Made by a program: the position numbers and the translations under genes. Below are positions 1,105 through 54,915 of a DNA stretch of 64,000 nucleotides, in pieces. The stretch covers positions 1 through 64,000 of IMG/VR virus record IMGVR_UViG_3300027758_000008; one strand, given 5' to 3'. The stretch is from a virus. The notes beneath the pieces are model-generated. The model saw only the letters and a list, made by a program, of their open reading frames with translations. It had not been told where the DNA came from and did not search any database. The stretch's first letter is position 1, and each line of letters starts with the position of its first letter.

Positions 1105-1140
1105 TGGTCAAACCACTAGACGCAATATTTATGGTATTGT
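1105..1140 (+). promoter_or_regulatory. Palindrome-type promoter P1 (accessory gene)
   Basis: The palindrome TGGTCAAACCA (1105-1115) is followed 30 bases after its first base by a -10-like TATTGT (1135-1140). No TTGACA-like -35 lies 16-18 bases upstream of the -10; the palindrome occupies that place. The same layout recurs at seven other sites in the window. The only gene downstream is the plus-strand ORF at 1161. Confidence 0.7.
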
Positions 1141-1160
1141 GGGGTTTTTGGGAGGGAAAC

Positions 1161-1442
1161 ATGAGCGGAACATTTACATTGGTGTCGGAGCAATTACCGC
1201 CTGAGCATGTGCCATTAATTGGCATCTCATTGGGGCCAAAACTTCACACAGTAATATTTGATGGGTGCAGGTTTATCGACAGAGCTAGCGGTAATGAGTT
1301 TGCCCTAGGCTGCATTATTGCTTGGTATGATATGAGCAAGCACGAAAAAAGCGACTGGCCTATTGTCGCTGGAAGTTTGCACGTTTGCGTAAACGCGCTT
1401 TTCTCAGCATTGGCTAACACTCAACATTCACAGAAAACCTAA
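1161..1442 (+). CDS. Accessory (moron-like) protein, unknown
   Basis: This 93-residue protein lies on the strand opposite the tail genes, with its own promoter (1105-1140) and a GGGAGGG ribosome binding site before ATG 1161. Its 3' end overlaps the tail terminator gene by 29 bases. No motif was recognised; the middle has a short hydrophobic stretch (GCIIAWY). In unit B the promoter is present but the gene is missing. That pattern fits a moron, a gene gained or lost independently of the tail module. Function is unknown; host-directed or superinfection roles are usual for morons but are not shown here. Confidence 0.7.
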   Translation: MSGTFTLVSEQLPPEHVPLIGISLGPKLHTVIFDGCRFIDRASGNEFALGCIIAWYDMSKHEKSDWPIVAGSLHVCVNALFSALANTQHSQKT

Positions 1443-1812
1443 CCATCCAACGGCCTGAGCCTGTTCGCATGGGTCGGCCAACTGATTCGGCGGTGTTGAC
1501 TACTTTCATGGTGCCGCTATCATACGACAGGTTGTTAAATAGGTACGTTTGGCAACTTGTCGCATCATTTACCAGAGTCAGCCAATCATCGGGTAATTCT
1601 GACACGTCACTAAACAGCGTCACTTGAATCAGGTAACGGGCGGTATCTGTGTTTGACTCTCTGCCGGTAGCGTTAACCAAACAGATTGATACGCTATCAT
1701 TAGTAAACGGCAAAGCTGAATCATCCCAAAAAATAGCGTGATGATAGCCAGTAAGCACATTGTCTATTAGTGCAGTGCGGACAACTTCCGCTGGTAACGT
1801 GCTTGCGCTCAT
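1414..1812 (-). CDS. Tail terminator / tail completion protein
   Basis: This 132-residue protein lies between the HK97 gp10-like gene and the tail tube gene, where siphophages encode the protein that caps the finished tail tube. It has alternating beta strands and a hydrophobic run (YLIQVTLFSDVSELP), and the C-terminus ends in a strand. Its start overlaps the preceding stop (ATGA type), which suggests translational coupling. The unit B protein differs at a few residues near the N-terminus. Assignment is by position and size. Confidence 0.65.
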   Translation of the reverse strand: MSASTLPAEVVRTALIDNVLTGYHHAIFWDDSALPFTNDSVSICLVNATGRESNTDTARYLIQVTLFSDVSELPDDWLTLVNDATSCQTYLFNNLSYDSGTMKVVNTAESVGRPMRTGSGRWMVRFSVNVEC

Positions 1813-2219
1813 TTGCTCATTTCCTCTCTAAATACTTCGTTTAGGTTGATGCTTTGCAATCCGTGTTCAATCCAGCGTGATTTTGCGTTAGGGTTTGTTA
1901 GTGCGCCACGCTTACCGGATGCGTCAGGGCCACGCGGAGACCAGTTATCATTGTAGTACAGCCAACCGGCATACGCTGTCGTGTGGTCGCCGCCATAGCT
2001 TAATGTGACAGACCATACACCACCCTCTCGAACAGGTGTGGTCACTTCCTTAGACTGCATCAAGTCGCCCGTATCCATCGGCACAAAGTAGTCAGAAGCT
2101 GTGCCAAGTTTCCACGCAGTCATGTAGCAGGCATCTTTAGCCTTAACCTGTAGCTCTTTGGTCCACGCATCCAGCTTGTTGTTAGCGTCCGTGTATGACT
2201 TACCTGGTTTGAATGGCAT
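1809..2219 (-). CDS. HK97 gp10-like neck protein
   Basis: This 136-residue protein has the neck or minor-capsid pattern FVPMDTGDLMQS followed by YAGWLYYNDNWSPRGPDAS and a C-terminal IEHGLQSINLNEVFREEM. It is likely part of the head-tail connector. It overlaps the neighbouring genes by a few bases, as in a coupled operon. The unit B version is nearly identical. The fold is inferred from order and the MDTGDL region. Confidence 0.65.
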   Translation of the reverse strand: MPFKPGKSYTDANNKLDAWTKELQVKAKDACYMTAWKLGTASDYFVPMDTGDLMQSKEVTTPVREGGVWSVTLSYGGDHTTAYAGWLYYNDNWSPRGPDASGKRGALTNPNAKSRWIEHGLQSINLNEVFREEMSK

Positions 2220-2560
2220 TAGCCGGTCAACAACACATAATCTTTGCCGCCAACTAAAGGTGTAGCGGTTTCCACCTTAACAATCTTCTCAGCGCCTGAC
2301 ACCGGCGTTAAGTCTGCATGTTCGCCCACTGCAATCATATCGCCCTTCTGTGCACTGGCGTATTTGGTCACATAGGTTGTATTGGGCTGAAACTCTTCCT
2401 GTTCGTCATCACGGCGAATAGCGCCACCATCCTTAAACCTAGCGTCAAACGTAACAGGCGCATCCCAGCCGCCACCGTATGGGCTTGACGACGTGTCAAC
2501 AGTGGACTTGCGCCAAATGGTGACAGTCTCTTGTGGGAATTGGCCGATAATTGTGCTCAT
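2219..2560 (-). CDS. Head closure / head-tail stopper
   Basis: This 113-residue, beta-rich protein fits a head closure protein that keeps packaged DNA in the capsid and presents the docking surface for the tail. It lies between the adaptor and gp10-like genes, the usual place for this role. It overlaps both neighbours by a few bases. The unit B homologue changes only a handful of residues, such as D/N in the central FK(D/N)GGAIRRDDE stretch. Confidence 0.6.
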   Translation of the reverse strand: MSTIIGQFPQETVTIWRKSTVDTSSSPYGGGWDAPVTFDARFKDGGAIRRDDEQEEFQPNTTYVTKYASAQKGDMIAVGEHADLTPVSGAEKIVKVETATPLVGGKDYVLLTG

Positions 2561-2916
2561 CCGCGTTGCACCTGTAAAGGATACGCACCACCCTGACCAA
2601 TAGCCGTTAACACACAGACTCCCGCGTCCATACCTTGAAGCAAATCAAGATATTGATTACCGGAGCCTTTGCTTGTGTCGAATGATACCGAGTCACCGGT
2701 AAAGCTAGACTGGCTGGAAAGTTGCCCGCCTGACTGCTGCACAATCATCGCCGCAGCGCCATACATCTTAGCTAATTTAGCTTGTGCGTCACTGTAGCCG
2801 CCTGTCGTGATACATGCGTCCGCTTCGTCCACCACATCAATAATCATTTGAATTGACGCATCTGACAGGCTGTTAGGCACAAAATCCCGAACCTCTGAAA
2901 CTGTTATCGTAGCCAT
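2557..2916 (-). CDS. Head-tail adaptor protein
   Basis: This 119-residue protein starts with an alpha-helical segment (VSEVRDFVPNSLSDASIQMIIDVVDEADACI) typical of gp6-like connector adaptors that bind the portal ring. It is the first of four connector genes in a coupled series. Its ATG lies inside the last codons of a broken small ORF (2904-3002). The unit B copy is nearly identical. No catalytic residues are expected. Confidence 0.62.
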   Translation of the reverse strand: MATITVSEVRDFVPNSLSDASIQMIIDVVDEADACITTGGYSDAQAKLAKMYGAAAMIVQQSGGQLSSQSSFTGDSVSFDTSKGSGNQYLDLLQGMDAGVCVLTAIGQGGAYPLQVQRG

Positions 2917-3002: not shown

Positions 3003-4598
3003 TTAATTCAACTTTCTGCATATCGGACTATCAAAATAGACTGTAACATCCGTAGCACCCGTATGAGTGCGCAAAACAAACTGTGGTTGAATAGTGGTTT
3101 CGCCCCCTGATAGTGTGGAGACTACCATAGATGTTAGTATTCCTGTTATTTCCTGCCCCGCTGGTATTTCATCGGTGTAGTGATCCTCGTTAACTGTCTC
3201 GAAAATGTCGTTACCAATTTTCACAGTTACATTTGACAGCCCACTGTGACCAGCCACAACTTTAAATCTGCAAAATGCCACATAAACATCGCCAGACACA
3301 CCAGTAATTGATATGTCCTGCCTCATGTTTGTAACCTGCGTTTGCGAGCCAACATTACCGGATATAGTCACCGCCTGAGACTCTGTGCCATCACCGAAAG
3401 CATTAGAAACCTTTGACACTGTTACAGTAGCCCCTGAAACGTTACTGCCAACCGTCCAACTGTCCGCAACATTACCGCTAGTAGAGCCGCCGTCTGTTCC
3501 GGATGTTCCGGTTAATTGCGGATTAACAAAAAGATTATCGGATATTAGACCTTGCTGGTCGTTGGCGTTCTTGGCCGCTTTCAGGATTGCAGCACCTTGA
3601 GCAGAGCCTAAAACAACCGCACCCCACAAACTTAAATGAGTCCCGTCTGTGGTTGTGTCGTCATCCGCTGTAAAGTTTTCACCTGACTCAACATCAATGA
3701 TTACCCCGTCAATATCCAGTCCGCGCAAAGCTGCATTGTATGAACCCCTTAACGCCTTTTGCTCATCGGTCCATGGAAATGTTGCTGAGTCTGACTTCTC
3801 AGGCACGCCGTGGATAACCACAACGACTGCGCCGTAGTAAAATAAATTTCTTACAATCTCTTTAATATTTGAAATGTATTGCTCAACAGTTTCATTGGCG
3901 CTTACATCGTTTGTCCCAGCCTGCAAAGACACAACATCAGCAATGTTTGCGCCTATGGTAGTTATTCTCGCCAATATGTCAGAGGTTGTATCGCCGCCAA
4001 CGCCCTGATTATACCCATCTAGAAACCTTAACTTAGCGCCTACAGCGAGCTGAACGCCGTAGATTCTACTGAATGCCGCCGTGCTTGTTTCGCCCTCAGT
4101 GATAGAGTCCCCGACAAACATAATTGAACTGCCTGCATCCACCGCATTTACTGAGCCTCTGGTTACAGCGTTGCTAAAACTGGTAAAGGATAGGCCGCCC
4201 GTGCTAACAACACTCGCCACACCCCCAACCAACTGCACCTCGTATGGGCCGTCGGAGGCTTGGACTTTGATAGACTCGTCAGCGTCGAATGAATAATTCT
4301 TACCAGCGAAATAGCCCGATGCAGTAACATCTGCGATAGTGTCAGCGGTAAAATACTGATAGGTTCTGTCTGCCAGCTTAACCAAGCAATCACCATCTGA
4401 GCTAACGATAGCCACAAAGCTATTATTAGGACATAGGCAGTTAATTGTCGCGTTACCAGGATTATTAAGCGTTACCGATGACAGGTCAAAATAACCAGCC
4501 TGTGACACGGTGTAGCGGTCATCGTCGGTTACGTATTTGAAATTATTGCCGGTTGTGGAGCGCGGCATTTGCTCTAGGTTTTTCAGATTAAAGGCCAT
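3003..4598 (-). CDS. SGNH-hydrolase virion fibre (shared N-terminal domain)
   Basis: This 531-residue protein has two parts. Residues 1 to about 132 form a domain also found at the N-terminus of the unit B protein at 42805-44325 and, more distantly, in 11030-12490. After it comes an SGNH/GDSL hydrolase with block I GDSITEG, block II GVGGDTT, block III GTNDV and the C-terminal DGTHLS dyad, then a beta-rich tail. Such enzymes can remove acetyl groups from surface sugars; a receptor-processing role is inferred. ATG 4598 shares bases with the upstream TAA (TAATG). In unit B the enzyme half is replaced by a beta-helix. Confidence 0.75.
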   Translation of the reverse strand: MAFNLKNLEQMPRSTTGNNFKYVTDDDRYTVSQAGYFDLSSVTLNNPGNATINCLCPNNSFVAIVSSDGDCLVKLADRTYQYFTADTIADVTASGYFAGKNYSFDADESIKVQASDGPYEVQLVGGVASVVSTGGLSFTSFSNAVTRGSVNAVDAGSSIMFVGDSITEGETSTAAFSRIYGVQLAVGAKLRFLDGYNQGVGGDTTSDILARITTIGANIADVVSLQAGTNDVSANETVEQYISNIKEIVRNLFYYGAVVVVIHGVPEKSDSATFPWTDEQKALRGSYNAALRGLDIDGVIIDVESGENFTADDDTTTDGTHLSLWGAVVLGSAQGAAILKAAKNANDQQGLISDNLFVNPQLTGTSGTDGGSTSGNVADSWTVGSNVSGATVTVSKVSNAFGDGTESQAVTISGNVGSQTQVTNMRQDISITGVSGDVYVAFCRFKVVAGHSGLSNVTVKIGNDIFETVNEDHYTDEIPAGQEITGILTSMVVSTLSGGETTIQPQFVLRTHTGATDVTVYFDSPICRKLN

Positions 4599-5221
4599 TA
4601 CTGCCGCTCCTCCCATTCGAGTTGATAAAGAAATTCACTATCTGTCGTGCCGTTGATATTCGTAAACACCAGCAAGAAAGTATTCCCAGCCGCCACGCCT
4701 GACGCATTACCGCTTGCTGTGTAGCTTGAAGCCGCCCGACTACCGCCGCCCGATGTTGGCACAAGGTAGGACGTGCCTGTGCGCTTGGGTGCAGTTGTGC
4801 TGAATGCGGTTGCAATGCGTTTCTCAATCGTCACACCGCTTGTAGGGTGCGAATCCAAACCGCTAACAGATAGGTCGTTGTTAATCGGTGAAAGTTTGGT
4901 GCTTGTTACATCTGCCCACGAGCCGCCACTGATAGCCTCACTGCCGGTGAACGGGTAAACAATGTATTTGCGCCCACCAGCCCAGCCATTAATCAGGCGC
5001 AACTGTAGTTTTAGCGGGTAAACAGTTGTAAACCGATAGATGAGAATATCAGTATCAGCAATCGCATCTGCGCCGCTACAGTCGTCAAAGAACTTGAACT
5101 GTAAGTTAGCCTCAAAGCTTGATTGCTGATTATCTACAGCAAAGCGCGCAGTGTTTTTGTTTTGCGTGGTCAGCAGAAAGTCTGCCCACGCATTGGGAAT
5201 CAATCTATTCAGAATCGCCAT
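4598..5221 (-). CDS. Virion-associated protein, unknown (207 aa)
   Basis: This protein begins MAILNRLIPNAWADFLL and is rich in Ser, Thr and Gly with predicted beta structure. The preferred ATG at 5221 overlaps the end of the small gene 5205-5375; a longer in-frame start at 5320 would run deep into that gene. It ends in TAATG with the fibre gene, so the two are probably coupled. It is strongly conserved in unit B. Its place between capsid and fibre genes suggests a fibre base or head decoration protein, which is inference. Confidence 0.6.
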   Translation of the reverse strand: MAILNRLIPNAWADFLLTTQNKNTARFAVDNQQSSFEANLQFKFFDDCSGADAIADTDILIYRFTTVYPLKLQLRLINGWAGGRKYIVYPFTGSEAISGGSWADVTSTKLSPINNDLSVSGLDSHPTSGVTIEKRIATAFSTTAPKRTGTSYLVPTSGGGSRAASSYTASGNASGVAAGNTFLLVFTNINGTTDSEFLYQLEWEERQ

Positions 5222-5375: not shown

Positions 5376-5386
5376 AGCTGTCTCAC

Positions 5387-5422
5387 TGGTTAGACCACTT
5401 GTTACGTACAGTTTACTATAAT
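5387..5422 (+). promoter_or_regulatory. Palindrome-type promoter P2 (cargo cassette)
   Basis: The palindrome TGGTTAGACCA (5387-5397) lies 30 bases, start to start, before a perfect TATAAT (5417-5422), with no -35 hexamer. It drives the plus-strand cassette 5455-6604 against the late operon. The unit B counterpart at 45105-45140 keeps both elements although the genes behind it are mostly different. Confidence 0.75.
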
Positions 5423-5454: not shown

Positions 5455-5796
5455 ATGATTGGAAAGGACGTGACTGTGACGATTGGCGACAAGGAGCTTG
5501 ATTTTAATTTAAGCTCAGAGGTTATAGAGCCTATTGAATTTGAGTCGCAAGTAGCACAAGTAGGAAAGGGCTTCTCTTTTAACGCTGAAAGCACCGTCGA
5601 ATTTTCTGGTAGCGCTGAGTTTTCTGGAGTTGTAACCTATGATGACGGCATGGTAATGAAATTAAAAGGAATGAAAAGCACCGGCCCAAATCATTATTTT
5701 TCTTACAACTTCAAATGCGGGAGCATTTCAGTTAAGCGATACATGAAAACCAAATCAAAGCAGCCGCGAACGATTGCTGTTTGGCGTGAAATTTAA
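5455..5796 (+). CDS. Accessory cassette protein 1, unknown
   Basis: This 113-residue protein is the first gene after promoter P2, with a TTTGGAGA ribosome binding site. It reads as mostly beta strands (VTVTIGDKELDFNL, STVEFSGSAEFSGVVTYDDGMVMKLKG) with a basic C-terminus. No homologue is present in unit B and no family was recognised. Its location in a bounded cassette next to the capsid gene makes it a candidate host- or competitor-directed gene. Confidence 0.6.
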   Translation: MIGKDVTVTIGDKELDFNLSSEVIEPIEFESQVAQVGKGFSFNAESTVEFSGSAEFSGVVTYDDGMVMKLKGMKSTGPNHYFSYNFKCGSISVKRYMKTKSKQPRTIAVWREI

Positions 5797-5818
5797 TTAG
5801 GCAAATTTGGAGAAGGGA

Positions 5819-6001
5819 ATGGAAAAGAAGAGAAAAATGTTCAAAAAGAAAAAAATAAACATAAAGGTCGCCGAAGCTCAATCGCGCTACTTTTTTGCAT
5901 TTGCTGTCGCTGACGCGATGTTCAAAAGCGAAGTATGTGCAGAGGCCGTTGCTCAAGGGGCGTTTTTTAGAACACTAGGCTACAAAGTGAGGGTTAAGTG
6001 A
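5819..6001 (+). CDS. Accessory cassette protein 2, basic, unknown
   Basis: This 60-residue protein starts at ATG 5819 after TTTGGAGAAGGG. Its N-terminus is very basic (MEKKRKMFKKKKINIK), followed by a helix and a C-terminus ending LGYKVRVK. The same C-terminal ending occurs in the otherwise different first gene of the unit B cassette (45173-45322), so the two share a 3' module. Its stop overlaps the next start (TGATG). Function is unknown. Confidence 0.6.
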   Translation: MEKKRKMFKKKKINIKVAEAQSRYFFAFAVADAMFKSEVCAEAVAQGAFFRTLGYKVRVK

Positions 6002-6303
6002 TGTTTACATACATAGCAGTAAACGGCGCGGTAGTCGAAAATAATTACGGTGGCGGTTATGGCGGTGAGTGGATAAGCCCAATCGGCGGGAGGGGCGGCT
6101 CGTCCAACTTCGATGATGGGCAAAATCTTAACGGGGGATCGTGGAAGGCAATAGATGTTCCGTACTGGGAAAGGCGCGTCAAGCAGATTGGTAAGGGCAA
6201 GCGGCACTATTTTGCCCTTAATGGCTGGTGGCATTACATTGAGATTGATGACGCTCTACCGCCGCTAGTTAGTTGGTACATTGGGAGGGTAAGTGATGAT
6301 TAA
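6001..6303 (+). CDS. Accessory cassette protein 3 (Gly-rich, KQIGKGKRHYF family)
   Basis: This 100-residue protein has a glycine-rich N-terminal half (GGGYGGEWISPIGGRGGSS) and a C-terminal signature VPYWE-RRVKQIGKGKRHYF, then WHYIEIDDALPPL. The unit B cassette carries a clear homologue (45838-46140) that keeps GG spacing, the basic signature and the LPPL ending but differs in most other residues. It is the only whole gene shared by the two cassettes, which suggests it is a core part of the cargo system. No known family was recognised. Confidence 0.62.
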   Translation: MFTYIAVNGAVVENNYGGGYGGEWISPIGGRGGSSNFDDGQNLNGGSWKAIDVPYWERRVKQIGKGKRHYFALNGWWHYIEIDDALPPLVSWYIGRVSDD

Positions 6304-6604
6304 ATTAAACGCTATAGCAGCCATTGAACAATTCGAGAAATTCTGCGCTAGAGGTAGAGGTCACCTTGTAACAATAAAGAGGCCTGATGGAGAAAGTATC
6401 TGCCATCGCACTAATATTTTTATTATGACATTGAGTTGCAATTACAAAGGGAAGTATTCCGATGGCTCAATTTTTGGAAGGGTTGAATTTAATGCAGACT
6501 CAGAAAAGGGTGAAATAAATAAAATATTGCACGAAACATTCTCTGACATGAATAAAAGGATGAATGAATTTGACACGCCTGAAAAGAAGGATGTGTTCAC
6601 ATAA
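6296..6604 (+). CDS. Accessory cassette protein 4, unknown
   Basis: This 102-residue protein overlaps the preceding gene by a few bases and starts at ATG 6296 (GTGATG context). It begins with a helix (MIKLNAIAAIEQFEKFCARG) followed by beta strands and an acidic-basic helical C-terminus. It has no counterpart in unit B. The bidirectional terminator at 6606-6634 follows its stop at once. Confidence 0.55.
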   Translation: MIKLNAIAAIEQFEKFCARGRGHLVTIKRPDGESICHRTNIFIMTLSCNYKGKYSDGSIFGRVEFNADSEKGEINKILHETFSDMNKRMNEFDTPEKKDVFT

Positions 6605-9880: not shown

Positions 9881-9917
9881 AATTAACCTTTACCTGTTTT
9901 GCTCCAATTTTAGCCAC

Positions 9918-9928
9918 TGGTCTAACCA
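9918..9928. promoter_or_regulatory. Orphan operator-like palindrome
   Basis: TGGTCTAACCA lies in the 49-base gap between the portal and minor head genes. Unlike the other palindromes, no -10-like hexamer stands 30 bases away on either strand. It is kept in unit B (49437-49447). It may be a relic of a lost accessory promoter or a regulator site inside the late operon. Confidence 0.45.
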
Positions 9929-9929
9929 C

Positions 9930-11030
9930 TTACAAGCCCAATCGCTTAAATACTGTCGATTCCTCTTGCTCAAGCTCGTTTAATGTGATTGTGCGGCCTG
10001 TCATATCGGTGAATTTGGATAGCGATAATTTGCCATCGAGAAACAGTTTGGCCCTTGTGGTACCAAGCGATGATTCAACAAACCATCTAGGCTGTCTGCG
10101 TAACCATGCCTCGTGACTGGTGTCACTTCTAACCGTTGTCGGGTCGAATGCGTCTTTGTCACGCTTGCCTCTGTACTTTGGCTTACCATCCGTGCTGGCT
10201 TCTTTCTTCTCGAATGCTTCTTTTGCTGCCGGTCCTGATTTGCCGCCTATGGCAACCTGTTGGCCGGTTAACTCGAATCCTTCTGGACCGTAGATTAGTG
10301 TTGAGCGGCAGTTTGGGTGCAACGGAGGAATCGGTAACTTCGGGTCGTCAGCCTTAAATCGTTTCTTTGAGTTAGTCCGACAAATTAAACTAGTCCTGTT
10401 ATCCCACACGGCGACAAATATCGCCTCCTGATAGTATTTAGGATGCGCAGATACGTTAGCCCGCCTTGCCTGCTGTACGTAATGCGTGAAAGCTGTTCTG
10501 GCCAATGACTCAGCGCGGGTTTTCAGTGTACCGTCAAACTCAGCACGTATATTCTTTAGCACCTGGTTGACTGTCTCGGCGCGTGAATAGCCCTGTCGAA
10601 CCATTGACATAATGCGTTGATTTCTTCCAGCGTTATTGCCAGTAATGAATTCATCCCAGAAACCAGCCTGCTTTGACTGCTCCATGACAATCATTTGCTC
10701 ACCGATGAACGATAGAATCTCATTCTTTGCCGGTGGCGTTAGCTCAGTGTTGCGCAGCATGTAACGCACCTCATACAATGCCGCCTCTTGCATATCCTTG
10801 GTGTAATCTGCCCAGCCTGAATTCAACTCGATAATGCGTTGTATGCGCTTCTCGATAGTCTCAAGCTGCTTTGGTGTGCGTGGCAAGCCGCCGTCGATGA
10901 TGAGCAGCCTGATTAGCCGGTACGTTTCCTCTAACCCTGGATAAACAGACGCGTTGATATACCCTGAATTTAACCTATCAAGGTATACCTCGTGCATTAA
11001 TTGTGCGTCTAGGTTTATTGTGATTGTCAT
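9930..11030 (-). CDS. Minor head protein (SPP1 gp7 / Mu gpF-like)
   Basis: This 366-residue protein carries the gpF-type signature: AVWDNRTSLICRTNSKKRF followed by PPLHPNCRSTLIYG. Such proteins sit inside the head near the portal and help early DNA ejection or capsid assembly. The ATG overlaps the stop of the SGNH gene by one base (ATTAAAG context). In unit B the second motif reads PPLHYFCRS and the gene is coupled directly to the large terminase. The C-terminal 100 residues are basic. Confidence 0.78.
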   Translation of the reverse strand: MTITINLDAQLMHEVYLDRLNSGYINASVYPGLEETYRLIRLLIIDGGLPRTPKQLETIEKRIQRIIELNSGWADYTKDMQEAALYEVRYMLRNTELTPPAKNEILSFIGEQMIVMEQSKQAGFWDEFITGNNAGRNQRIMSMVRQGYSRAETVNQVLKNIRAEFDGTLKTRAESLARTAFTHYVQQARRANVSAHPKYYQEAIFVAVWDNRTSLICRTNSKKRFKADDPKLPIPPLHPNCRSTLIYGPEGFELTGQQVAIGGKSGPAAKEAFEKKEASTDGKPKYRGKRDKDAFDPTTVRSDTSHEAWLRRQPRWFVESSLGTTRAKLFLDGKLSLSKFTDMTGRTITLNELEQEESTVFKRLGL

Positions 11031-12490
11031 TAAAGCCCGTAATGAGTCAGGTTGAACATCTGCGCCTGAGCGATATTAATATCTACATCAAATGTGCCAG
11101 CGTCAGCGCTGATTGCAAATCGCAAGCTTGAGACACCTTCAGGAACTTCAAGCTCAACACTAAGTGTTGTTGCGTCTACGCTTACCGCTGCCTGTCTCAT
11201 CATGTATACGCGGTCAACTGAATTGACGGTAACATCGTATTGCACAAAAACACTAAGCTCACACGAGCCGCTGTTTATGGTATTACTAAACCGCATCACA
11301 CACAGGTATGTGTCGCCCTCGGTAACGTTCCAACGGCTAGAGTTAATAAATAACTGGCTATTAACCCAGTTAACTTGCCATGTGTTACCTATTCCAAGCG
11401 ACGTTTCTGCCAGTGACTGAGTATTTTGATTTCCGTTAGTGGCCCAATTATTCGGCAGCCCTGCGCCGTATGTTCCAGTTGTAAAGCACCCATTCGGATT
11501 CAATATAACACTGTCAATTGTGTAATCGTCTATCCTTGGTAGTGGCGTATAGTACCTATTATTTAGGTAGTCATCTGCCAATTTGTAACCGGCTGTTTGT
11601 TCTGCTGCTGGGTCTGGATGGGTTCCATCCGATGATGCGCCACTAACCCATGCGCCGGTCGATGGGTCGGTTAACTCGTCCCATATGCCGAAGCACTTAA
11701 TTCCTTTCTTCCTAGCTGTTACATAGTCGTATAAGTTAGCCTCAAAAACATACTCGCTACGTGCAGCTGTATCATGCGGAGGAGCCATAATCATAAGAGG
11801 CTCTGAACCTATACCGGAAACATAATCCAAACATGTAGCAATGTTATCCCTATGCTCTATAAGCGTAACGCCTGCCGCATAATCATTGGTCGCCTCCATA
11901 ACAGTTACGAGCGTGCCGTCTATATCGGACAGCCTTGCAATCATCTGGTTTGTGTTATTACCTCCAACGCCAGCATTAGTTTTAAAAACCACTGCGCCGC
12001 CACTGTTTCTAGCGAACCATGTGCCAAAATTATTGATAGCCTCACTGATTGAGTTGCCAAACACGCATAGCTGTTCCTGCCCACTGTTCAGTTTTGTTCT
12101 GACCAAACTAGCAACCCCGCCACTCGACTTAACTTCGTATTCGCCGTCTGCGGCCTGAACCTTGATAGAATCAATTGACGTAAATGAAACGCCTTTGCCC
12201 GAGAAATAACCAGAAGCCGTTACAGTTGCGATTGAATCAGGCGTTGAGTAATTCCAGATTCTAGGCGTTGCGTTATCGCACTTAGCCATTGCGGTAAGGA
12301 TATCGCCGTCAGTGGTGATATATGCCAAGACGCTGCCGTTAGAGCAAACGCAATTGACAGTCGATAATTCTGAACTGAAAGTGTAGCCGGTGAAATAGGT
12401 GTGTTGTGATACTTCTTCGACAGTGTCGTCTGTTACGTATCTAAATTTAACCGCCGAGATTCTGTCAACGTTCAATGCCTGGAATGCCAT
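11030..12490 (-). CDS. Second SGNH-hydrolase fibre, unit A only
   Basis: This 486-residue protein has an N-terminal domain related to that of 3003-4598 (FRYVTDD...VSQ, then TVTASGYFSGKGVSF...SIKVQAADGEYEV). An SGNH-like hydrolase follows, with GNSISE in place of GDS, GVGGNNTNQ, the weak block III ATND and DGTHPDP. Replacement of the usual GDS aspartate by Asn leaves the nucleophile Ser but may alter activity. It sits between large terminase and minor head genes and is absent from unit B, where those genes are fused by an ATGA overlap. It looks like an inserted duplicate fibre gene. Confidence 0.7.
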   Translation of the reverse strand: MAFQALNVDRISAVKFRYVTDDTVEEVSQHTYFTGYTFSSELSTVNCVCSNGSVLAYITTDGDILTAMAKCDNATPRIWNYSTPDSIATVTASGYFSGKGVSFTSIDSIKVQAADGEYEVKSSGGVASLVRTKLNSGQEQLCVFGNSISEAINNFGTWFARNSGGAVVFKTNAGVGGNNTNQMIARLSDIDGTLVTVMEATNDYAAGVTLIEHRDNIATCLDYVSGIGSEPLMIMAPPHDTAARSEYVFEANLYDYVTARKKGIKCFGIWDELTDPSTGAWVSGASSDGTHPDPAAEQTAGYKLADDYLNNRYYTPLPRIDDYTIDSVILNPNGCFTTGTYGAGLPNNWATNGNQNTQSLAETSLGIGNTWQVNWVNSQLFINSSRWNVTEGDTYLCVMRFSNTINSGSCELSVFVQYDVTVNSVDRVYMMRQAAVSVDATTLSVELEVPEGVSSLRFAISADAGTFDVDINIAQAQMFNLTHYGL

Positions 12491-16527: not shown

Positions 16528-16688
16528 ACCCTACCCCCATTCTCTGCGTATTTGCGCATAAGTTCTGGATGATTGAAAATCTCAAATGCTACCTTGTGCG
16601 TTTTCAACCCAGTTACCTGCGCGATTTTAATGTAACTCCGTGCGCCGTCTTGTAGTGCGGCGCTCACTTTACGGTAGTGTTTGTTCAT
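16524..16688 (-). CDS. Small HTH-like early protein (54 aa)
   Basis: This 54-residue protein begins MNKHYRKVSAALQDGARSYIKIAQVTGLKTHKVAFEI. The IKIAQVTGLKTHKVAFEI part fits a recognition helix-turn-helix. It overlaps its neighbours in the ATGA manner and is kept in unit B (53968-54132). It could be a small regulator of the operon driven by the palindrome promoter at 17092-17127. Confidence 0.55.
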   Translation of the reverse strand: MNKHYRKVSAALQDGARSYIKIAQVTGLKTHKVAFEIFNHPELMRKYAENGGRV

Positions 16689-17065: not shown

Positions 17066-17091
17066 CTTCATTTCCTCCATTAGTTTCACCC

Positions 17092-17127
17092 ATTATAACG
17101 GGTTAATTTTGTTTTGTGGTTTGACCA
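17092..17127 (-). promoter_or_regulatory. Palindrome-type promoter P3 (early operon, minus strand)
   Basis: On the minus strand TGGTCAAACCA (17127 to 17117) lies 30 bases, start to start, before a perfect TATAAT (17097 to 17092). It sits between 17129-17329 and the gene starting at 17065, so it drives the minus-strand block down to the terminator at 14266. The same element stands at 54880-54915 in unit B. Confidence 0.75.
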
Positions 17128-17128
17128 G

Positions 17129-17329
17129 TTAGTCTAAGTCTGGAATAACTACAAATCGAACAATATAGCCGTCGCTGCGACTAAACCATTCACCTTCTAC
17201 AACTTCAAAATTTCCATTTGTGACGGTACTTCCTGTCAGTATAAAGTTATCACCGTGGGCATGATGAAAAATATCACCATGCTTTACATCGTCGTCAGGA
17301 CCTAAAACTCTAGCTTTAACTTCCGGCAT
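17129..17329 (-). CDS. Small early protein, unknown (66 aa)
   Basis: This 66-residue protein starts at ATG 17329 in a TGATG overlap with the preceding gene. It reads as a small beta protein (ARVLGPDDDVKHGDIFHHAHGDNFIL) ending FVVIPDLD. Its stop lies two bases from the operator of promoter P3. There is no counterpart at the matching place in unit B. Function is unknown. Confidence 0.5.
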   Translation of the reverse strand: MPEVKARVLGPDDDVKHGDIFHHAHGDNFILTGSTVTNGNFEVVEGEWFSRSDGYIVRFVVIPDLD

Positions 17330-27320: not shown

Positions 27321-27353
27321 TAAGGCAAGCCGGCTCAACAGGGCCGGCTCCAC

Positions 27354-27389
27354 TGGTCAAACCACCTTGGCGCGTAGAGATGGTATATT
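27354..27389 (+). promoter_or_regulatory. Palindrome-type promoter P4 (pentapeptide operon)
   Basis: TGGTCAAACCA (27354-27364) lies 30 bases, start to start, before TATATT (27384-27389), preceded by ATGG as at P1. No -35 is present. A start of transcription near 27396 would leave a short leader with GGAGGGGG before ATG 27412. Confidence 0.75.
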
Positions 27390-27411
27390 GTAGGAAATGG
27401 AGGGGGATAAA

Positions 27412-29192: not shown

Positions 29193-29374
29193 CCAAAAAC
29201 ACAGGCAAAGCATCGTCGCCAGGATACCGAAAAGTCGCGACAATATACTGCCCAATCTACGGCTACGAGATAGAGCGCACTATTTGCGAGCACGACGATG
29301 TTTGGCTTGTTGACGTTTGGGGCGTTCCGTATCGGTGGGAGTGGGTGAAATCAGTGAAGGTGTATTGGCGATGA
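29189..29374 (+). CDS. Small early protein (61 aa)
   Basis: This 61-residue protein has GYRKVATIYCPIYGYEIERTICEHDDVWLVDVWG, a small beta-type fold with two Cys and many aromatics. It overlaps both neighbours in the ATGA manner. Function is unknown. Confidence 0.5.
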   Translation: MTKNTGKASSPGYRKVATIYCPIYGYEIERTICEHDDVWLVDVWGVPYRWEWVKSVKVYWR

Positions 29375-29640
29375 ATATGGAGCCGTTTAATTTTTGCATA
29401 CAATGGATGGTGTACGATTATTTGCCAACCCTGAAAACCGGAGACTTCCTACCTGGTCAACTTTGCATGCCCGATAGGATAGGCGTTGAGCGAAAGACGT
29501 ATCGAGAAGTGTTACGCGTTCTGGATTTCCATGGAGTTATAAGTGTCAAGCATGGCAAACCCACAAAGTTCATAAGCCTTAACAAGCCTGGACTGCTGTA
29601 CGTCATGGAGCGTAAAGGCTTAACTGGTCAAACCACATAA
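29371..29640 (+). CDS. Winged-helix DNA-binding protein (89 aa)
   Basis: This 89-residue protein starts at ATG 29371. It has LKTGDFLPGQLCMPDRIGVERKTYREVLRVLDFHGVISVKHGKPTKFI, close to the GntR-type winged helix (L-PG, then recognition helix and wing with G-V). Its last codons overlap the palindrome of promoter P5, so a protein bound there would sit at the end of this gene. It is a plausible candidate for the palindrome-binding regulator, but no direct link is visible. Confidence 0.6.
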   Translation: MNMEPFNFCIQWMVYDYLPTLKTGDFLPGQLCMPDRIGVERKTYREVLRVLDFHGVISVKHGKPTKFISLNKPGLLYVMERKGLTGQTT

Positions 29641-29660
29641 TCGAAAAATGGTGGTATATT
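29625..29660 (+). promoter_or_regulatory. Palindrome-type promoter P5
   Basis: TGGTCAAACCA (29625-29635) lies 30 bases, start to start, before TATATT (29655-29660), preceded by GTGG. It begins inside the last codons of the winged-helix gene and drives 29709-30725. Confidence 0.75.
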
Positions 29661-40990: not shown

Positions 40991-41027
40991 GGTTTAATCC
41001 TCATGGTTGATTTATAGTCATTCTAAC

Positions 41028-41063
41028 TGGTCAAACCACTAGACGCAATATTTATGGTATTGT
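41028..41063 (+). promoter_or_regulatory. Palindrome-type promoter P1' without a gene
   Basis: TGGTCAAACCA (41028-41038) and TATTGT (41058-41063) are identical to P1 of unit A. The accessory gene that follows P1 in unit A is missing: after TGTGGGG the sequence passes directly into the 3' end of the tail terminator gene. Confidence 0.7.
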
Positions 41064-45093: not shown

Positions 45094-45104
45094 AGCTGTC
45101 TCAC

Positions 45105-45140
45105 TGGTTAGACCACTTGTTACGTACAGTTTACTATAAT
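45105..45140 (+). promoter_or_regulatory. Palindrome-type promoter P2' (cargo cassette B)
   Basis: TGGTTAGACCA (45105-45115) lies 30 bases, start to start, before a perfect TATAAT (45135-45140), identical to P2 of unit A, and is followed by the same leader with GGCAAATTTGGAGA before a different first gene. Confidence 0.75.
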
Positions 45141-45172: not shown

Positions 45173-45322
45173 ATGATTGAATCAATAGAGCATGCAAGGC
45201 TATTGTACAGAAATGAATACCGCCTTTGCGCTGAAGTTCTCAGGCTGCCAATTAAGCGTTGCGAGAAAAGAGCACAGGCGGCTTACTTCAAGGCGCTAGG
45301 CTACAAAGTGAGGGTTAAGTGA
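45173..45322 (+). CDS. Cassette B protein 1 (49 aa)
   Basis: This 49-residue protein reads MIESIEHARLLYRNEYRLCAEVL and ends AAYFKALGYKVRVK. The last eight residues equal those of cassette A protein 2 (5819-6001). The ribosome binding site TTTGGAGAAGGGG is shared with that gene as well, so the two genes occupy equivalent places with different middles. The stop overlaps the next ATG. Function is unknown. Confidence 0.55.
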   Translation: MIESIEHARLLYRNEYRLCAEVLRLPIKRCEKRAQAAYFKALGYKVRVK

Positions 45323-45684
45323 TGAATACGCTAACATTAAGGTCATACGAGTGTACTTTAGATATTCAACGCGAGCAGGGCGTGACGCTGGATGCATTTT
45401 CCCACTCTAGTGTGCTAATCGACCCTCATCGCTACCACCTTGAATTTGAAACAGAGGATACAGAAAGATTTGAACTTGGGGAGAAGTGGGATGTTGCCAT
45501 TATTGAATATCGCGACCTTAAAGCATCAAACCCGGCGCTAGCTATTAACGAAGCGCAGAGGTTTGTTTATTCTGGAGCAACATACCACGGAACATTTATC
45601 GTTCAACATAAGTGGGAGCACGGAGTTGAAATGGTTTGCGAAGGTGAGCTTATAGGTGTGATGGAGGGCATTGGTGATGAGTGA
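45322..45684 (+). CDS. Cassette B protein 2, unknown (120 aa)
   Basis: This 120-residue, acidic, beta-rich protein (LTLRSYECTLDIQREQGVTLDAFSHSSVLIDPHRYHLEFETED, then EMVCEGELIGVMEGIGDE) has no counterpart in unit A. It overlaps the next gene by eight bases. No family was recognised. Confidence 0.55.
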   Translation: MNTLTLRSYECTLDIQREQGVTLDAFSHSSVLIDPHRYHLEFETEDTERFELGEKWDVAIIEYRDLKASNPALAINEAQRFVYSGATYHGTFIVQHKWEHGVEMVCEGELIGVMEGIGDE

Positions 45685-45838
45685 AGAAGATTACGAATAC
45701 ATATTCCGTGATAGGCACGAATCAAGCATTCCGTATATTGACGCGGGGGATTTGGATGATATACGCATTGACGGTAGTTTTTCACTTGGTGAGCTTGAGC
45801 GGCTTGTGTGGGCATTAAAGGATAGGGAGGGCAAGTGA
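45677..45838 (+). CDS. Cassette B protein 3 (53 aa)
   Basis: This 53-residue acidic protein reads MSEEDYEYIFRDRHESSIPY, then IDAGDLDDIRIDGSFSLGEL, ending in a basic helix. It overlaps both neighbours, its stop sharing bases with the next start (TGATG). It has no unit A counterpart. A strongly acidic small protein in such a cassette could be an inhibitor, but nothing shows this. Confidence 0.5.
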   Translation: MSEEDYEYIFRDRHESSIPYIDAGDLDDIRIDGSFSLGELERLVWALKDREGK

Positions 45839-46140
45839 TGATTAAAGAAACAGCAGTAAACGGCCCGTCATTTGTAAGTCGCTGCGGTGGCGGTCATGGC
45901 GGTGCGTGGATAAGCACAAGCGGCGGGAGCGCTGGATCATCTAGCTTTGGCATCAAAAGCCTTGAAGTTGACACGCGGAAGGGGGTAAGCGTTCCGTACT
46001 GGGAAAAGCGCGTCAAGCAGATTGGAAAAGGTAAGCGGCATTATTTTTATATTGACAAAATGTGGCACTACATTGAGCTTGATGAAGTCTTGCCGCCACT
46101 TATTCATTACAATGTCAGAATAACAAAAAGCCCCGCGTAA
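45838..46140 (+). CDS. Cassette B protein 4 (Gly-rich, KQIGKGKRHYF family)
   Basis: This 100-residue protein is homologous to 6001-6303: it keeps GGGHGGAWIS, the signature VPYWE-KRVKQIGKGKRHYF, WHYIELDEVLPPL, and the approximate glycine pattern, but many other residues differ. It is much more diverged than the flanking virion genes. Its stop codon lies in the loop of the terminator hairpin. Function is unknown. Confidence 0.62.
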   Translation: MIKETAVNGPSFVSRCGGGHGGAWISTSGGSAGSSSFGIKSLEVDTRKGVSVPYWEKRVKQIGKGKRHYFYIDKMWHYIELDEVLPPLIHYNVRITKSPA

Positions 46141-49399: not shown

Positions 49400-49436
49400 A
49401 ATTAACCTTTACTCGTTTTGCTCCAATTTTAGCCAC

Positions 49437-49447
49437 TGGTCTAACCA
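49437..49447. promoter_or_regulatory. Orphan operator-like palindrome (unit B)
   Basis: TGGTCTAACCA between portal and minor head genes, identical to 9918-9928 and likewise without a -10 box at the expected distance. Confidence 0.45.
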
Positions 49448-49448
49448 C

Positions 49449-50549
49449 TTACAAGCCCAATCGCTTAAATACTGTCGATTCCTCTTGCTCAAGCTCGTTT
49501 AATGTGATTGTGCGTCCTGTCATATCCGTGAATTTGGATAGCGATAATTTACCGTCAAGAAACAATTTAGCCCTTGTGGTGCCAAGCGATGATTCAACAA
49601 ACCATCTAGGCTGTCTGCGCAACCATGCCTCGTGGCTGGTATCGCTTCTAACTGTTGTCGGGTCGAATGCGTCTTTGTCGCGCTTGCCTCGATACTTGGG
49701 TTTGCCATCTGTGCGGGCTTCTTTCTTCTCAAACGCCTCTTTTGCTGCCGGTCCTGATTTACCGCCTATGGCAACCTGCTGACCTGTTAGCTCGAATCCT
49801 TCGGGCCCATAGATTAGTGTGCTACGACAAAAATAGTGGAGAGGAGGAACCGGTAACTTCGGGTCATCAGCCTTAAACCGTTTTTTAGAATTGTTGCGAC
49901 ATATCAAACTAGTCCGATTATCCCACACAGCAACGAATATCGCTTCCTGATAGTACTTAGGGTGCGCAGATACATTGGCTCGTCTCGCCTGTTGTACGTA
50001 ATGCGTGAAGGCTGTTCTGGCTAATGACTCAGCGCGGGTTTTCAGTGTGCCGTCAAACTCAGCGCGGATATTCTTTATCACCTGATTAACTGTCTCGGCG
50101 CGTGAATAGCCCTGTCGAACCATTGACATAATGCGCTGATTGCGTCCGGCGTTATTACCAGTGATGAATTCATCCCAGAAGCCAGCCTGCTTTGACTGCT
50201 CCATGACAATCATTTGCTCGCCGATAAACGATAGGATTTCATTTCTCGCCGGTGGCGTTAGCTCAGTATTGCGAAGCATGTAACGCACTTCATACAATGC
50301 CGCCTCTTGCATATCCTTGGTGTAATCGGCCCAGCCTGAGTTCAATTCGATGATGCGTTGTATGCGCTTCTCGATAGTCTCAAGCTGTTTTGGCGTGCGT
50401 GGTAAGCCGCCGTCAAGAATAAGCAGCCTGATTAACCGGTACGTTTCCTCTAACCCTGGATACACAGACGCGTTGATATACCCTGAATTTAACCTATCAA
50501 GGTATACCTCGTGCATTAATTGTGCGTCTAGGTTTATTGTGATTGTCAT
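49449..50549 (-). CDS. Minor head protein (SPP1 gp7 / Mu gpF-like, unit B)
   Basis: This 366-residue copy of 9930-11030 has the second gpF motif as PPLHYFCRSTLIYG instead of PPLHPNCRS, and CRNNSKK instead of CRTNSKK. Its ATG overlaps the large terminase stop (ATGA), because the SGNH fibre gene found here in unit A is absent. Confidence 0.78.
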   Translation of the reverse strand: MTITINLDAQLMHEVYLDRLNSGYINASVYPGLEETYRLIRLLILDGGLPRTPKQLETIEKRIQRIIELNSGWADYTKDMQEAALYEVRYMLRNTELTPPARNEILSFIGEQMIVMEQSKQAGFWDEFITGNNAGRNQRIMSMVRQGYSRAETVNQVIKNIRAEFDGTLKTRAESLARTAFTHYVQQARRANVSAHPKYYQEAIFVAVWDNRTSLICRNNSKKRFKADDPKLPVPPLHYFCRSTLIYGPEGFELTGQQVAIGGKSGPAAKEAFEKKEARTDGKPKYRGKRDKDAFDPTTVRSDTSHEAWLRRQPRWFVESSLGTTRAKLFLDGKLSLSKFTDMTGRTITLNELEQEESTVFKRLGL

Positions 50550-53631: not shown

Positions 53632-53816
53632 TTCCTCGCCCTCCAACTCTTCTTAGCTTTATGTATCGCTGTAAACGCTTCGATATTGTCGTTTACCACA
53701 CGATACGCGTATTGTGGGTGACAGCCTACCGCATTCGATAATGACAGCACCGTGCGATGTTTACCCGTTTTCGCCTCTGCGATGATTGCAGGGGCTATTG
53801 TGCCGTATCGTTTCAT
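53628..53816 (-). CDS. Small HTH-like early protein (62 aa, unit B)
   Basis: This copy of 16184-16372 differs at one residue (SWRARK against SWSARK). It overlaps the start of the broken membrane protein gene and marks the right edge of the segment missing in unit B. Confidence 0.55.
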   Translation of the reverse strand: MKRYGTIAPAIIAEAKTGKHRTVLSLSNAVGCHPQYAYRVVNDNIEAFTAIHKAKKSWRARK

Positions 53817-53971
53817 TCCTCTTCCTCACAGTCCAGTATCTCTGCGTCGTACCAATAACTGTCAACGTACTGTGCTTCCGCATGTGCCATTGCTTTTGCG
53901 TCATCCGCATTATCAGCCTCAACCCACAATTCATCTTCCATCATCATTTGTGTTTTTACTAAATATTTCAC
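53813..53971 (-). CDS. Small acidic early protein (52 aa, unit B)
   Basis: This copy of 16372-16527 starts at GTG 53971 and ends CEEEE with one extra Glu because the stop is shifted by three bases. Few other changes (K/E, G/D). Confidence 0.55.
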   Translation of the reverse strand: MKYLVKTQMMMEDELWVEADNADDAKAMAHAEAQYVDSYWYDAEILDCEEEE

Positions 53972-54132
53972 ACCCTACCCCCATTCTCTGCGTATTTGCG
54001 CATAAGTTCCGGATGATTGAAAATCTCAAATGCTACCTTGTGCGTTTTCAATCCCGTTACCTGCGCGATTTTAATGTAGCTACGTGCGCCGTCTTGTAGT
54101 GCGGCGCTCACTTTGCGGTAGTGTTTGTTCAT
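53968..54132 (-). CDS. Small HTH-like early protein (54 aa, unit B)
   Basis: This copy of 16524-16688 is almost unchanged at residue level, with synonymous changes in the DNA. It overlaps both neighbours. Confidence 0.55.
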   Translation of the reverse strand: MNKHYRKVSAALQDGARSYIKIAQVTGLKTHKVAFEIFNHPELMRKYAENGGRV

Positions 54133-54515
54133 AGAAAGTCTGACCAATCATAACCAACCGGCATTTCTTCAGACGTAACGATATGATTATAAATCTCGTC
54201 TTTCGCCAACTTGTCGAATAGCTCTTGATTCAACTGCCCGATATCAGTGCCAGCCATTGATATTGCAATCAGCCTGCGCATTTCTTCCGACTCGCACATA
54301 GAGCCAATAACGGTTCCTCGTGACACGATGTGAGTGTTATTGCAGTATCTCCACTCCATCGATTTACCATCTGCAACGCGCTCTGCCAGCCTCTCGGCGA
54401 TATACCATAGGTTATCATTGCTGATACTGTCATAAGTCAGTAGCGTTGCTTCTGGCTCGTCTGGTAACTGTCTGTCGTATGCGGTTTGCAAGTTTGTGAA
54501 TTTTAAGCCGGTCAT
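54129..54515 (-). CDS. Early protein with conserved ends, unknown (unit B)
   Basis: This 128-residue homologue of 16685-17065 begins MTGLKFTNLQTAYDRQLPDEPEA and ends EEMPVGYDWSDFL. The middle (about residues 65-100) differs strongly from unit A. Here it is not the first gene of the operon; the CPCC protein gene precedes it. Confidence 0.6.
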   Translation of the reverse strand: MTGLKFTNLQTAYDRQLPDEPEATLLTYDSISNDNLWYIAERLAERVADGKSMEWRYCNNTHIVSRGTVIGSMCESEEMRRLIAISMAGTDIGQLNQELFDKLAKDEIYNHIVTSEEMPVGYDWSDFL

Positions 54516-54517
54516 AA

Positions 54518-54853
54518 TTAAAGCCACCTCTTTTCGCCGTTGGTGAAGTGAATGCAAACTTCCTTCCCTTCCTTCATCCAGCGCATAAAATTAAATTCAT
54601 CTTCCAGCAAATCTGTGCCGGAGTACATTGGCGACTCTGTAGCATCGCTATCATCGCATTCGTACCACCTTTCGCCACAGCATGGACAATAGCCACTTTT
54701 TCCGCCTTCAAAATCCCCAACAAGGAATAGCAACTTTTCATTAGCTTCATGCGACGAGTTAGCCTCAATAATAACGTGACGAGTAATGCCGTCATCCTCG
54801 TCAAAATCAAAGTGACCGCCGCTGTTGTTTTGCGTAAAAGTATAAAACGCCAT
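54518..54853 (-). CDS. CPCC zinc-knuckle early protein (111 aa)
   Basis: This 111-residue protein starts at ATG 54853 and contains HVIIEANSSHEANEKLLFLVG followed by GYCPCCGERWYEC, a probable zinc site. The C-terminus (FMRWMKEGKEVCIHFTNGEKRW) is a short beta-type ending. It lies directly behind promoter P3' and is extra relative to unit A. It resembles small phage proteins of the DUF7296 type, from memory. Confidence 0.55.
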   Translation of the reverse strand: MAFYTFTQNNSGGHFDFDEDDGITRHVIIEANSSHEANEKLLFLVGDFEGGKSGYCPCCGERWYECDDSDATESPMYSGTDLLEDEFNFMRWMKEGKEVCIHFTNGEKRWL

Positions 54854-54879
54854 TTTCATCCCCTCCATTAGTTTCACCC

Positions 54880-54915
54880 ATTATAACGGGTTAATTTTGT
54901 TTTGTGGTTTGACCA
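54880..54915 (-). promoter_or_regulatory. Palindrome-type promoter P3' (unit B)
   Basis: Minus-strand TGGTCAAACCA (54915 to 54905) lies 30 bases, start to start, before a perfect TATAAT (54885 to 54880). Surrounding bases are nearly identical to P3 of unit A, but the genes on both sides differ. Confidence 0.75.

What the first reader, a model, noticed from the sequence alone, without database searches (positions are those of the whole stretch)
1105..54915. A dispersed phage promoter family: palindrome TGGTYWRACCA exactly 30 bases before a -10 box
Eight sites share one layout: + strand 1105, 5387, 27354, 29625, 41028 and 45105; - strand 17127 and 54915. The palindrome TGGTCAAACCA or TGGTTAGACCA starts exactly 30 bases before TATAAT, TATATT or TATTGT. 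No -35 hexamer is present; the place is filled by the palindrome, centred near -37. Nearly all transcripts behind these sites are accessory or small early genes, on both strands and inside late regions. Three pairs keep the element while the genes behind it change. Mu C and Mor show that a dyad can replace the -35 as an activator site. Here a phage-coded or host regulator may switch a scattered accessory regulon on or off. I know of no description of this motif. Candidate binders visible are the winged-helix protein 29371-29640, the NinH-like 28720-29016 and the Cro-like 18567-18782; none is demonstrated.
Basis: partly seen in the sequence, partly recalled or inferred. Interest (0 to 1): 0.85.

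Follow-up and report, generated by a model that had tools for sequence, protein, structure and literature searches.

The report
Mobile FadR-type promoters in marine phages
Several viruses of marine bacteria carry the same short promoter, built on a DNA palindrome of the kind bound by the fatty-acid regulator FadR and its relatives, in front of many small interchangeable genes, which suggests that a FadR-like protein switches these genes.

Summary
The window lies in a 73,523-base virus record joining two related phage genomes, each with six palindromes at matching places. All 12 read ACTGGTYWRACCAC; 10 have TANNNT exactly 30 bases after the palindrome start (shuffles: mean 0.015). The unit TGGTYNRACCAC-N18/19-TATANT occurs in other phages, up to seven sites per record; 13 of 13 places not used to fetch their contigs also have a -10 at offset 30 or 31. 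Copies from different phages share a near-identical block from the palindrome towards the ribosome-binding site between unlike flanks: an exchangeable promoter cassette. Copy a encodes an 89-residue protein whose six best matches among solved structures are FadR, and its gene ends inside one site. I propose sigma-70 promoters with a degenerate -35 (ACCACW) overlapped by a FadR-type operator, read by host FadR (or a relative) or the phage mimic, and probably activated. Promoter function is a strong inference from sequence. The binder, the direction of control and the host are unproven; host chromosomes show no such regulon, and geometry differs by 1-2 bases from fabA/fabB.

The parts
1103..1140 (+). 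Class A site: ACTGGTCAAACCAC, N18, -10 TATTGT; gene 1131-1442 behind it
5385..5422 (+). Class B site: ACTGGTTAGACCAC, N18, -10 TATAAT; small genes 5455-6604 behind it
9916..9953 (+).
17092..17129 (-). Class D site: ACTGGTCAAACCAC, N18, -10 TATAAT; gene 16685-17089 behind it
27352..27389 (+). Class E site: ACTGGTCAAACCAC, N18, -10 TATATT; pentapeptide-repeat gene 27397-28119 behind it
29623..29660 (+). Class F site: ACTGGTCAAACCAC, N18, -10 TATATT; overlaps the 3' end of the FadR-like gene
29371..29640 (+). 89-residue FadR-like DNA-binding domain without effector domain (found in copy a and record G002)
41026..41063 (+). Class A site of copy b; no gene behind it (next + strand ORF 4.1 kb away)
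45103..45140 (+). Class B site of copy b; different small genes behind it (45173-46140)
49435..49472 (+). Class C palindrome of copy b; no TANNNT at offset 30
54880..54917 (-). Class D site of copy b; different gene behind it (54518-54877)

Best explanation
Each site is a sigma-70 promoter cassette of about 56 bases running from a FadR-type operator (ACTGGTYNRACCAC, centred near -37) through a -10 (TATANT) to the ribosome-binding site. The promoter-proximal operator arm supplies a degenerate -35 (ACCACW) with a 17- or 18-base spacer, which would account for both the C after ACCA and the two observed -10 distances (inference). A dimer of a FadR-subfamily GntR protein, most likely the host's FadR, binds the operator. 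Because the -35 is poor and the -10 good, it probably helps RNA polymerase (activation, inferred), as FadR does at fabA and fabB. Copy a also encodes a stand-alone FadR-like DNA-binding domain that could compete with or replace host FadR at these sites (inferred). The cassette is kept while the small genes around it are exchanged. Shown here: the motif, its fixed register, its spread, cassette conservation, and FadR-like operator and protein sequence. Not shown: transcription starts, binding, direction of control, host.
For: Far above shuffles. In 11 other records, sites not used to fetch their contig: 13 of 15 strand-readings, 13 of 13 places (in 5 of the 11 records), have TANNNT at offset 30 or 31; two are shared by descent between G057 and G052, so about 11 are independent. 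28 of 31 non-redundant sites (of 96 collected) have TANNNT at their best offset (many had been fetched by their -10). In unlike phages the spacing piles up at N18 and N19. Cassette block 100% alike to +36 with left flanks at 30-36% in classes D (4 copies) and E (6 copies). TGGTNNNACCA with a 3-base centre is the FadR-subfamily operator core (PMC4494728, passages), and GTGTGGTCAGACCACAC is a predicted operator of a FadR-subfamily regulator (PMC2018728, passages), with the same GACCAC arm. The base before TGGT is C in 71 and G in 4 of 75 readings, as at E. coli fadB, fadL (C) and fadE (G), not T as at pdhR. Protein 29371-29640: six best PDB matches all FadR, E 8.6e-6 to 1.2e-5; alignment score with a host FadR 106 against at most 41 for 200 shuffles. 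FadR in 26 of 26 Pseudoalteromonas genomes searched; the window phage's tail protein matches 28 phage records, 16 of them Pseudoalteromonas.
Against: No transcript or binding data. The operator-to-(-10) distance is 30 or 31 in phages but 32 at E. coli fabA and fabB and at the one Pseudoalteromonas fabA that I could read (these -10s are my assignment by eye). A review says that FadR as an activator binds upstream of the -35 (PMC9329746, passages); here the operator overlaps it. Host chromosomes hardly use the unit: 10 hits for the N18 form in genome contigs, of which 8 of the 9 besides L142 lie inside ORFs of 100 aa or more and only L142 looks promoter-like; 1 of 394 genomes of that order, the same L142, for N18/N19. 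ACTGGTYNRACCA is rarer than the reversed control in 10 Pseudoalteromonas genomes, 19 against 44, so no host regulon of this form was seen. The phage FadR-like protein changes 3 of 7 FadR DNA-contact residues (Arg35, Thr44, Thr46, by my alignment), scores below Pfam's GntR cut-off (20.8 of 27 bits), and GntR hits occur in only 4 of 33 site-bearing records, two of them weak. 0 of 16 isolated relatives carry a promoter-like site (3 of 16 have a bare palindrome). The single-sequence fold failed (pLDDT 40.5).
Confidence: 0.5

Rival explanations
1. Same promoters, but the binder is an unknown phage-coded activator (Mor/C- or MotA-like) unrelated to FadR.
For: Host chromosomes hardly use the unit, so it is a phage trait. 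Activator-dependent early or middle promoters are known in T4 and Mu (recalled).
Against: No shared regulator was seen: in iterative profile searches over 11 larger records, the printed families (top 40, three or more records) common to the window phage and G052 were a head-morphogenesis protein, the major head protein and three without an assigned regulatory role. Families shared by only two records were not printed, and a fast-evolving small protein could escape.
Confidence: 0.22
2. The palindrome is a repressor operator overlapping weak sigma-70 promoters: FadR or another GntR protein keeps accessory genes off until it is released, for example by acyl-CoA.
For: The operator covers the -35; FadR represses fad genes (PMC9329746, passages); the -10s are good and classes A, E and F have TGG before them.
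Against: The -35 position is occupied by the palindrome arm (true by construction for sites collected by the palindrome), whereas exact TTGACA promoters stand ahead of the genes at 25577 and 59842 of the same phages; a repressed promoter could have kept a good -35.
Confidence: 0.2
3. The palindrome is mainly a recombination site for exchanging gene cassettes.
For: The conserved block begins at the palindrome in classes D and E and the flanks are unlike.
Against: It does not explain the -10 at fixed register in unlike phages, or the right boundary near the ribosome-binding site; no site-specific recombinase was among the families listed for the proteins scanned (lists capped).
Confidence: 0.05
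4. Chance or duplication: the repeats reflect only shared ancestry of two joined genomes.
For: The two copies are homologous, so pairs are not independent.
Against: Copy a alone has 5 full sites against 0.005 expected; unlike spacer sequences share the same register.
Confidence: 0.01

Closest known systems
FadR-activated promoters fabA and fabB of gammaproteobacteria (FadR, GntR family)
   Same: Operator of the FadR type a little upstream of a -10, with a weak -35.
   Different: Phage operators are closer to TGGTNNNACCA than fabA/fabB (TGATCGGACTT); -10 at 30 or 31 rather than 32 bases; several copies per genome; phage accessory genes behind.
Operators of other FadR-subfamily GntR regulators (for example the predicted MSMEG_0596 operator GTGTGGTCAGACCACAC, PMC2018728)
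   Same: Same core, including the GTGGTC/GACCAC arms.
   Different: Actinobacterial prediction without a stated promoter register in the passages seen.
T4-type mobile regulatory cassettes (promoter early plus stem-loop, PeSL; recalled, not found in the library)
   Same: A promoter block that stays while the accessory genes around it are exchanged.
   Different: The block starts with a FadR-type operator; the left flank is not conserved.
Phage Mu Mor/C and T4 MotA activated promoters (recalled)
   Same: An activator site stands in for the -35 of a sigma-70 promoter.
   Different: Different site sequences; no shared phage-coded activator was found here.
FadR protein (DNA-binding domain)
   Same: Protein 29371-29640 keeps the wing HGKPTK and 4 of 7 DNA-contact residues.
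   Different: 89 residues, no acyl-CoA-binding domain, Arg35 replaced by Leu.

Membership tests
FadR-type operator | TGGT-N3-ACCA core (FadR-subfamily spacing) | tested here: met
   12 of 12 palindromes in the record; consensus in PMC4494728 (passages)
FadR-type operator | C or G before TGGT (FadR), not T (PdhR) | tested here: met
   12 of 12 C in the record; C 71, G 4 of 75 readings in all records; E. coli fadB and fadL C, fadE G, pdhR T
FadR-type operator | Symmetric outer bases of the FadR consensus (ACCAG; recalled) | tested here: not met
   All 12 sites of the record are ACCAC; E. coli fadE read on its other strand also has GACCACTT, as has a predicted FadR-subfamily operator
FadR-activated promoter (fabA/fabB type) | Same distance from operator to -10 | tested here: not met
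   30 or 31 in phages against 32 in E. coli and one Pseudoalteromonas (-10s assigned by eye)
FadR-activated promoter | Host has FadR | tested here: inconclusive
   26 of 26 Pseudoalteromonas genomes searched, but the host is not proven
FadR-activated promoter | FadR binds, acyl-CoA releases | not testable with these tools
   needs gel shift or reporter
GntR/FadR protein (29371-29640) | GntR winged-helix domain over Pfam cut-off | tested here: not met
   20.8 bits, cut-off 27; yet the six best PDB matches are FadR
GntR/FadR protein (29371-29640) | C-terminal acyl-CoA-binding domain | tested here: not met
   the reading frame ends after 89 residues
T4-type mobile promoter cassette | Promoter conserved, neighbouring genes exchanged | tested here: met
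T4-type mobile promoter cassette | Adjacent conserved stem-loop | tested here: inconclusive
   60-base left flank not conserved; folding not run
Mu Mor/C promoter | Phage codes a Mor/C protein | tested here: inconclusive
   not among the 25 of 42 Pfam families shown for 45 small proteins of the window

The most novel reading that the evidence does not exclude
A widespread group of marine phages has wired its accessory genes to the host's fatty-acid sensor FadR through a mobile promoter cassette, so that these genes follow the host's lipid state, and at least one phage carries a ligand-blind FadR mimic to take over that control during infection.
Probability: 0.3. Interest if true: 0.85.

Novelty: new variant of a known kind. 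Interest (0 to 1): 0.62.

Why it matters
It would give a sequence handle on how marine phages express small interchangeable genes of unknown function: one promoter class, recognisable by eye, across unlike phages. If FadR is the binder, it would be a direct link between host lipid metabolism and phage accessory gene expression, testable with standard FadR gel shifts and E. coli fadR strains.

Tried and rejected
A shared phage-coded regulator: iterative profile searches over 11 larger records (queries up to 400 aa from two of them, output limited to the top 40 families and to those in three or more records) and Pfam/PHROG scans of 49 of 61 G052 ORFs of 40-400 aa and of 45 chosen window proteins (only the first 25 of 50, 42, 113 and 50 families shown) gave no common regulator. 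A GntR search over 33 site-bearing records hit 4: the window record, G002 (two hits), and two weak partial hits in longer frames. A host regulon of the same form was not seen. PdhR-type operator: rejected on the base before TGGT. Known isolates: 0 of 16 promoter-like; the class D block had one short chance match in the phage collection. RNA families: none in the window at gathering thresholds; the Pseudoalteromonas prydzensis site has only sub-threshold Rfam matches. Fold of the 89-residue protein from one sequence: pLDDT 40.5, not used further. Papers with 'FadR' and phage: the one of the listing that I opened matched the author name Fadrosh. The spacing scan also has a peak at N15 (15 matches); most of these are near-identical copies of one sequence and were set aside by eye, as were repeated coding-like matches at N18. 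In one search, 59 matches of C-TGGTYNRACCA-N19-TATANT outside the window's family have C 23, T 17, G 11, A 8 after ACCA; by eye, from about 40 bases downstream, I took only C matches as promoter-like; one G sequence found in four contigs (L216, L222, L225, L238) was not examined further.
Full report
What is in the record. The window is bases 1-64000 of a 73,523-base virus record. Self-comparison shows two related phages one after the other, offset about 39.9 kb. Record G002 (IMGVR 3300027790_000027) contains the wrap from base 39923 back to base 1 at 100% over 400 bases, so copy a is a circular or circularly permuted genome of about 39.9 kb, and the a-to-b junction in this record is either an assembly join or a natural concatemer; I cannot tell which. 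The phages have portal, major head, terminase and tail families of tailed phages. No integrase was among the families listed in the scans I ran, but not every protein was scanned and some lists are capped. The tail protein 34226-36436 matches 28 phage records, 16 named Pseudoalteromonas; the host is probably of that kind but is not proven.

The sites. Exact search gives eight full sites in the window as stated; the record has twelve palindromes in six homologous pairs. All twelve read ACTGGTYWRACCAC; ten have TANNNT at offset 30. Class C (9918, 49437) has none there. In 200 dinucleotide shuffles the full unit appears 0.015 times on average against 10 observed, and 0.005 against 5 for copy a alone.

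Other phages. A scan of the viral contigs with ACTGGTYWRACCAC-N18-TAT gave 68 stretches; one with ACTGGTYNRACCAC, N13-23 and TATANT gave 93. Outside the window's family the matches pile up at N18 (18) and N19 (19); N15 has 15, mostly copies of one sequence, and every other spacing has 1 to 4. Whole records were then searched: 26 of 34 carry TGGTYNRACCAC-N16-21-TANNNT and 0 of 34 the reversed control; most had been chosen because of a match, so only extra sites are informative. G052 (36,983 bases) has seven places. After removing near-duplicates 31 of 96 collected sites remain; 28 of 31 have TANNNT at the best offset, the exceptions being class C and two single-site contigs (L134, L085). In that set the C after ACCA and the A/G-C before TGGT were required by the search; in the wider set, with only the C after ACCA required, the base before TGGT is C in 71 and G in 4 of 75 readings. 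Of these 75 readings, 49 have a called ORF start 20-85 bases from the palindrome centre on the same strand, and 18 lie inside a called ORF (the ORF caller is crude).

Cassette behaviour. Copies with like left flanks were dropped first. In class D (4 kept of 6) the block from two bases before the palindrome to base +54 is 100% alike, while the 60-base left flank is 30% and the stretch +70 to +118 26% alike; class E (6 of 6) 100% to +36, then 95% to +54, flanks 36% and 37%; class F (4 of 4) 98%, then 55%, flanks 28% and 31% (alignments). In copy b the class A promoter has no gene behind it. In G018 the class B palindrome carries a substitution.

Why asymmetric, and why two spacings (inference). 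With a 17-base spacer to the -10 of the N18 sites, or 18 for N19, the -35 hexamer falls on ACCACW, which keeps A and C of TTGACA at positions 4-5. The operator-to-(-35) register is then constant and only the ordinary 17/18 variation of sigma-70 spacers remains. Among 59 matches of C-TGGTYNRACCA-N19-TATANT outside the family, the next base was C 23, T 17, G 11, A 8, and by eye I took only C matches as promoter-like. Exact TTGACA promoters stand ahead of the genes at 25577 (exonuclease VIII family) and 59842, so the palindrome promoters look like a separate class.

What could bind. TGGT-N3-ACCA is the operator core of FadR-subfamily GntR regulators (PMC4494728, passages). PMC2018728 (passages) lists GTGTGGTCAGACCACAC as a predicted operator of the FadR-subfamily regulator MSMEG_0596, which has the GACCAC arm of the phage sites. 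E. coli sites taken from the genome: fadB atcTGGTACGACCAgat, fadL agcTGGTCCGACCTata, fadE aagTGGTCAGACCTcct (its other strand ends GACCACTT), pdhR aatTGGTAAGACCAatt. The phage sites follow the fad genes, not pdhR. The window protein 29371-29640 matches FadR structures first. Of the seven FadR DNA-contact residues listed in PMC4259882 (passages), my alignment keeps Arg45, Thr47, Arg49 and His65 and changes Arg35, Thr44 and Thr46. Among viral contigs the scan found one further copy, in G002 (it reaches close relatives only). G002 also has a second GntR-like ORF, in a part of that record without TGGTYNRACCAC sites. So this phage protein is not the common binder; host FadR, present in 26 of 26 Pseudoalteromonas genomes searched (the one translated, L301, has the same wing and recognition-helix sequence as the FadR chains), is the simplest common factor.

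Against. Distances at fabA and fabB are 32, not 30 or 31 (-10 assigned by eye), and a review states that FadR as an activator binds upstream of the -35 (PMC9329746, passages). Host genomes lack promoters of this form: of 10 genome-contig hits for N18 only Pseudoalteromonas prydzensis looks promoter-like, and 8 of the other 9 lie inside ORFs of 100 aa or more; 1 of 394 genomes of its order, the same one, has the N18/N19 form; its own genome has 1 site against 3 control matches for a looser pattern. The palindrome is below one reversed control in ten genomes, 19 against 44. No isolate tested carries a promoter-like site (0 of 16). No binding or transcript data exist.

Literature. Seen as passages: PMC4494728, PMC4259882, PMC4537474, PMC9329746, PMC2018728; PMC3460868 and PMC10580990 were searched for terms only, the former without a hit. 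PMC4537474 (passages) reports that Shewanella FadR binds fabA, that fabA is activated by FadR in a reporter, and that long-chain acyl-CoA releases it. Searches for TGGTCAGACCA, phage-coded FadR/GntR, mobile regulatory cassettes, Pseudoalteromonas phage promoters, phage moron promoters and FadR with phage genomes showed no description of these promoters in the listings; most subscription papers are not in that library.

Verdict. Real, non-random and wider than reported. My estimates: promoter reading about 0.93; FadR-family binder about 0.6; activation rather than repression about 0.6; the combined statement 0.5, counting FadR-subfamily relatives of FadR.

Noticed in passing
window 39923/39924: The record joins two related phage genomes; G002 shows copy a closing on itself (39923 to 1) at 100% over 400 bases, so this is a chimera or concatemer.
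   Followed up: yes
L142 2966-4020 (Pseudoalteromonas prydzensis): The one promoter-like chromosomal copy lies before a terminator-like hairpin (by eye) and a NYN-domain gene, next to what looks like an IS110-type transposase (recalled, not searched): possible small RNA or mobile defence gene.
   Followed up: partly
window 3003-4616 and 11030-12490: Two GDSL lipase/acylhydrolase domains in copy a; of interest if accessory genes really answer to fatty acids.
   Followed up: partly
window 27397-28119: Pentapeptide-repeat protein directly behind the class E promoter, with internal DNA repeats; length differs between phages (240 aa here, 235 in G002, 150 in G023).
   Followed up: partly
window 18779-19780: Phosphoadenosine phosphosulfate reductase-like gene.
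   Followed up: no
G052 (L251/L252): One protein of this phage matches ribosome modulation factor (PF04957, E 3.2e-7).
   Followed up: no
G018 16420 (-): Class B promoter with a one-base change in the palindrome (TGGTTAGCCCAC) but unchanged spacer and -10: a natural variant for testing.
   Followed up: no
G002 59252-59410: A second GntR-like winged-helix ORF (28.8 bits, over the cut-off) in a part of the record without TGGTYNRACCAC sites.
   Followed up: partly
10 Pseudoalteromonas genomes: ACTGGTYNRACCA is rarer than its reversed control (19 against 44), as if avoided; only one control was used.
   Followed up: no
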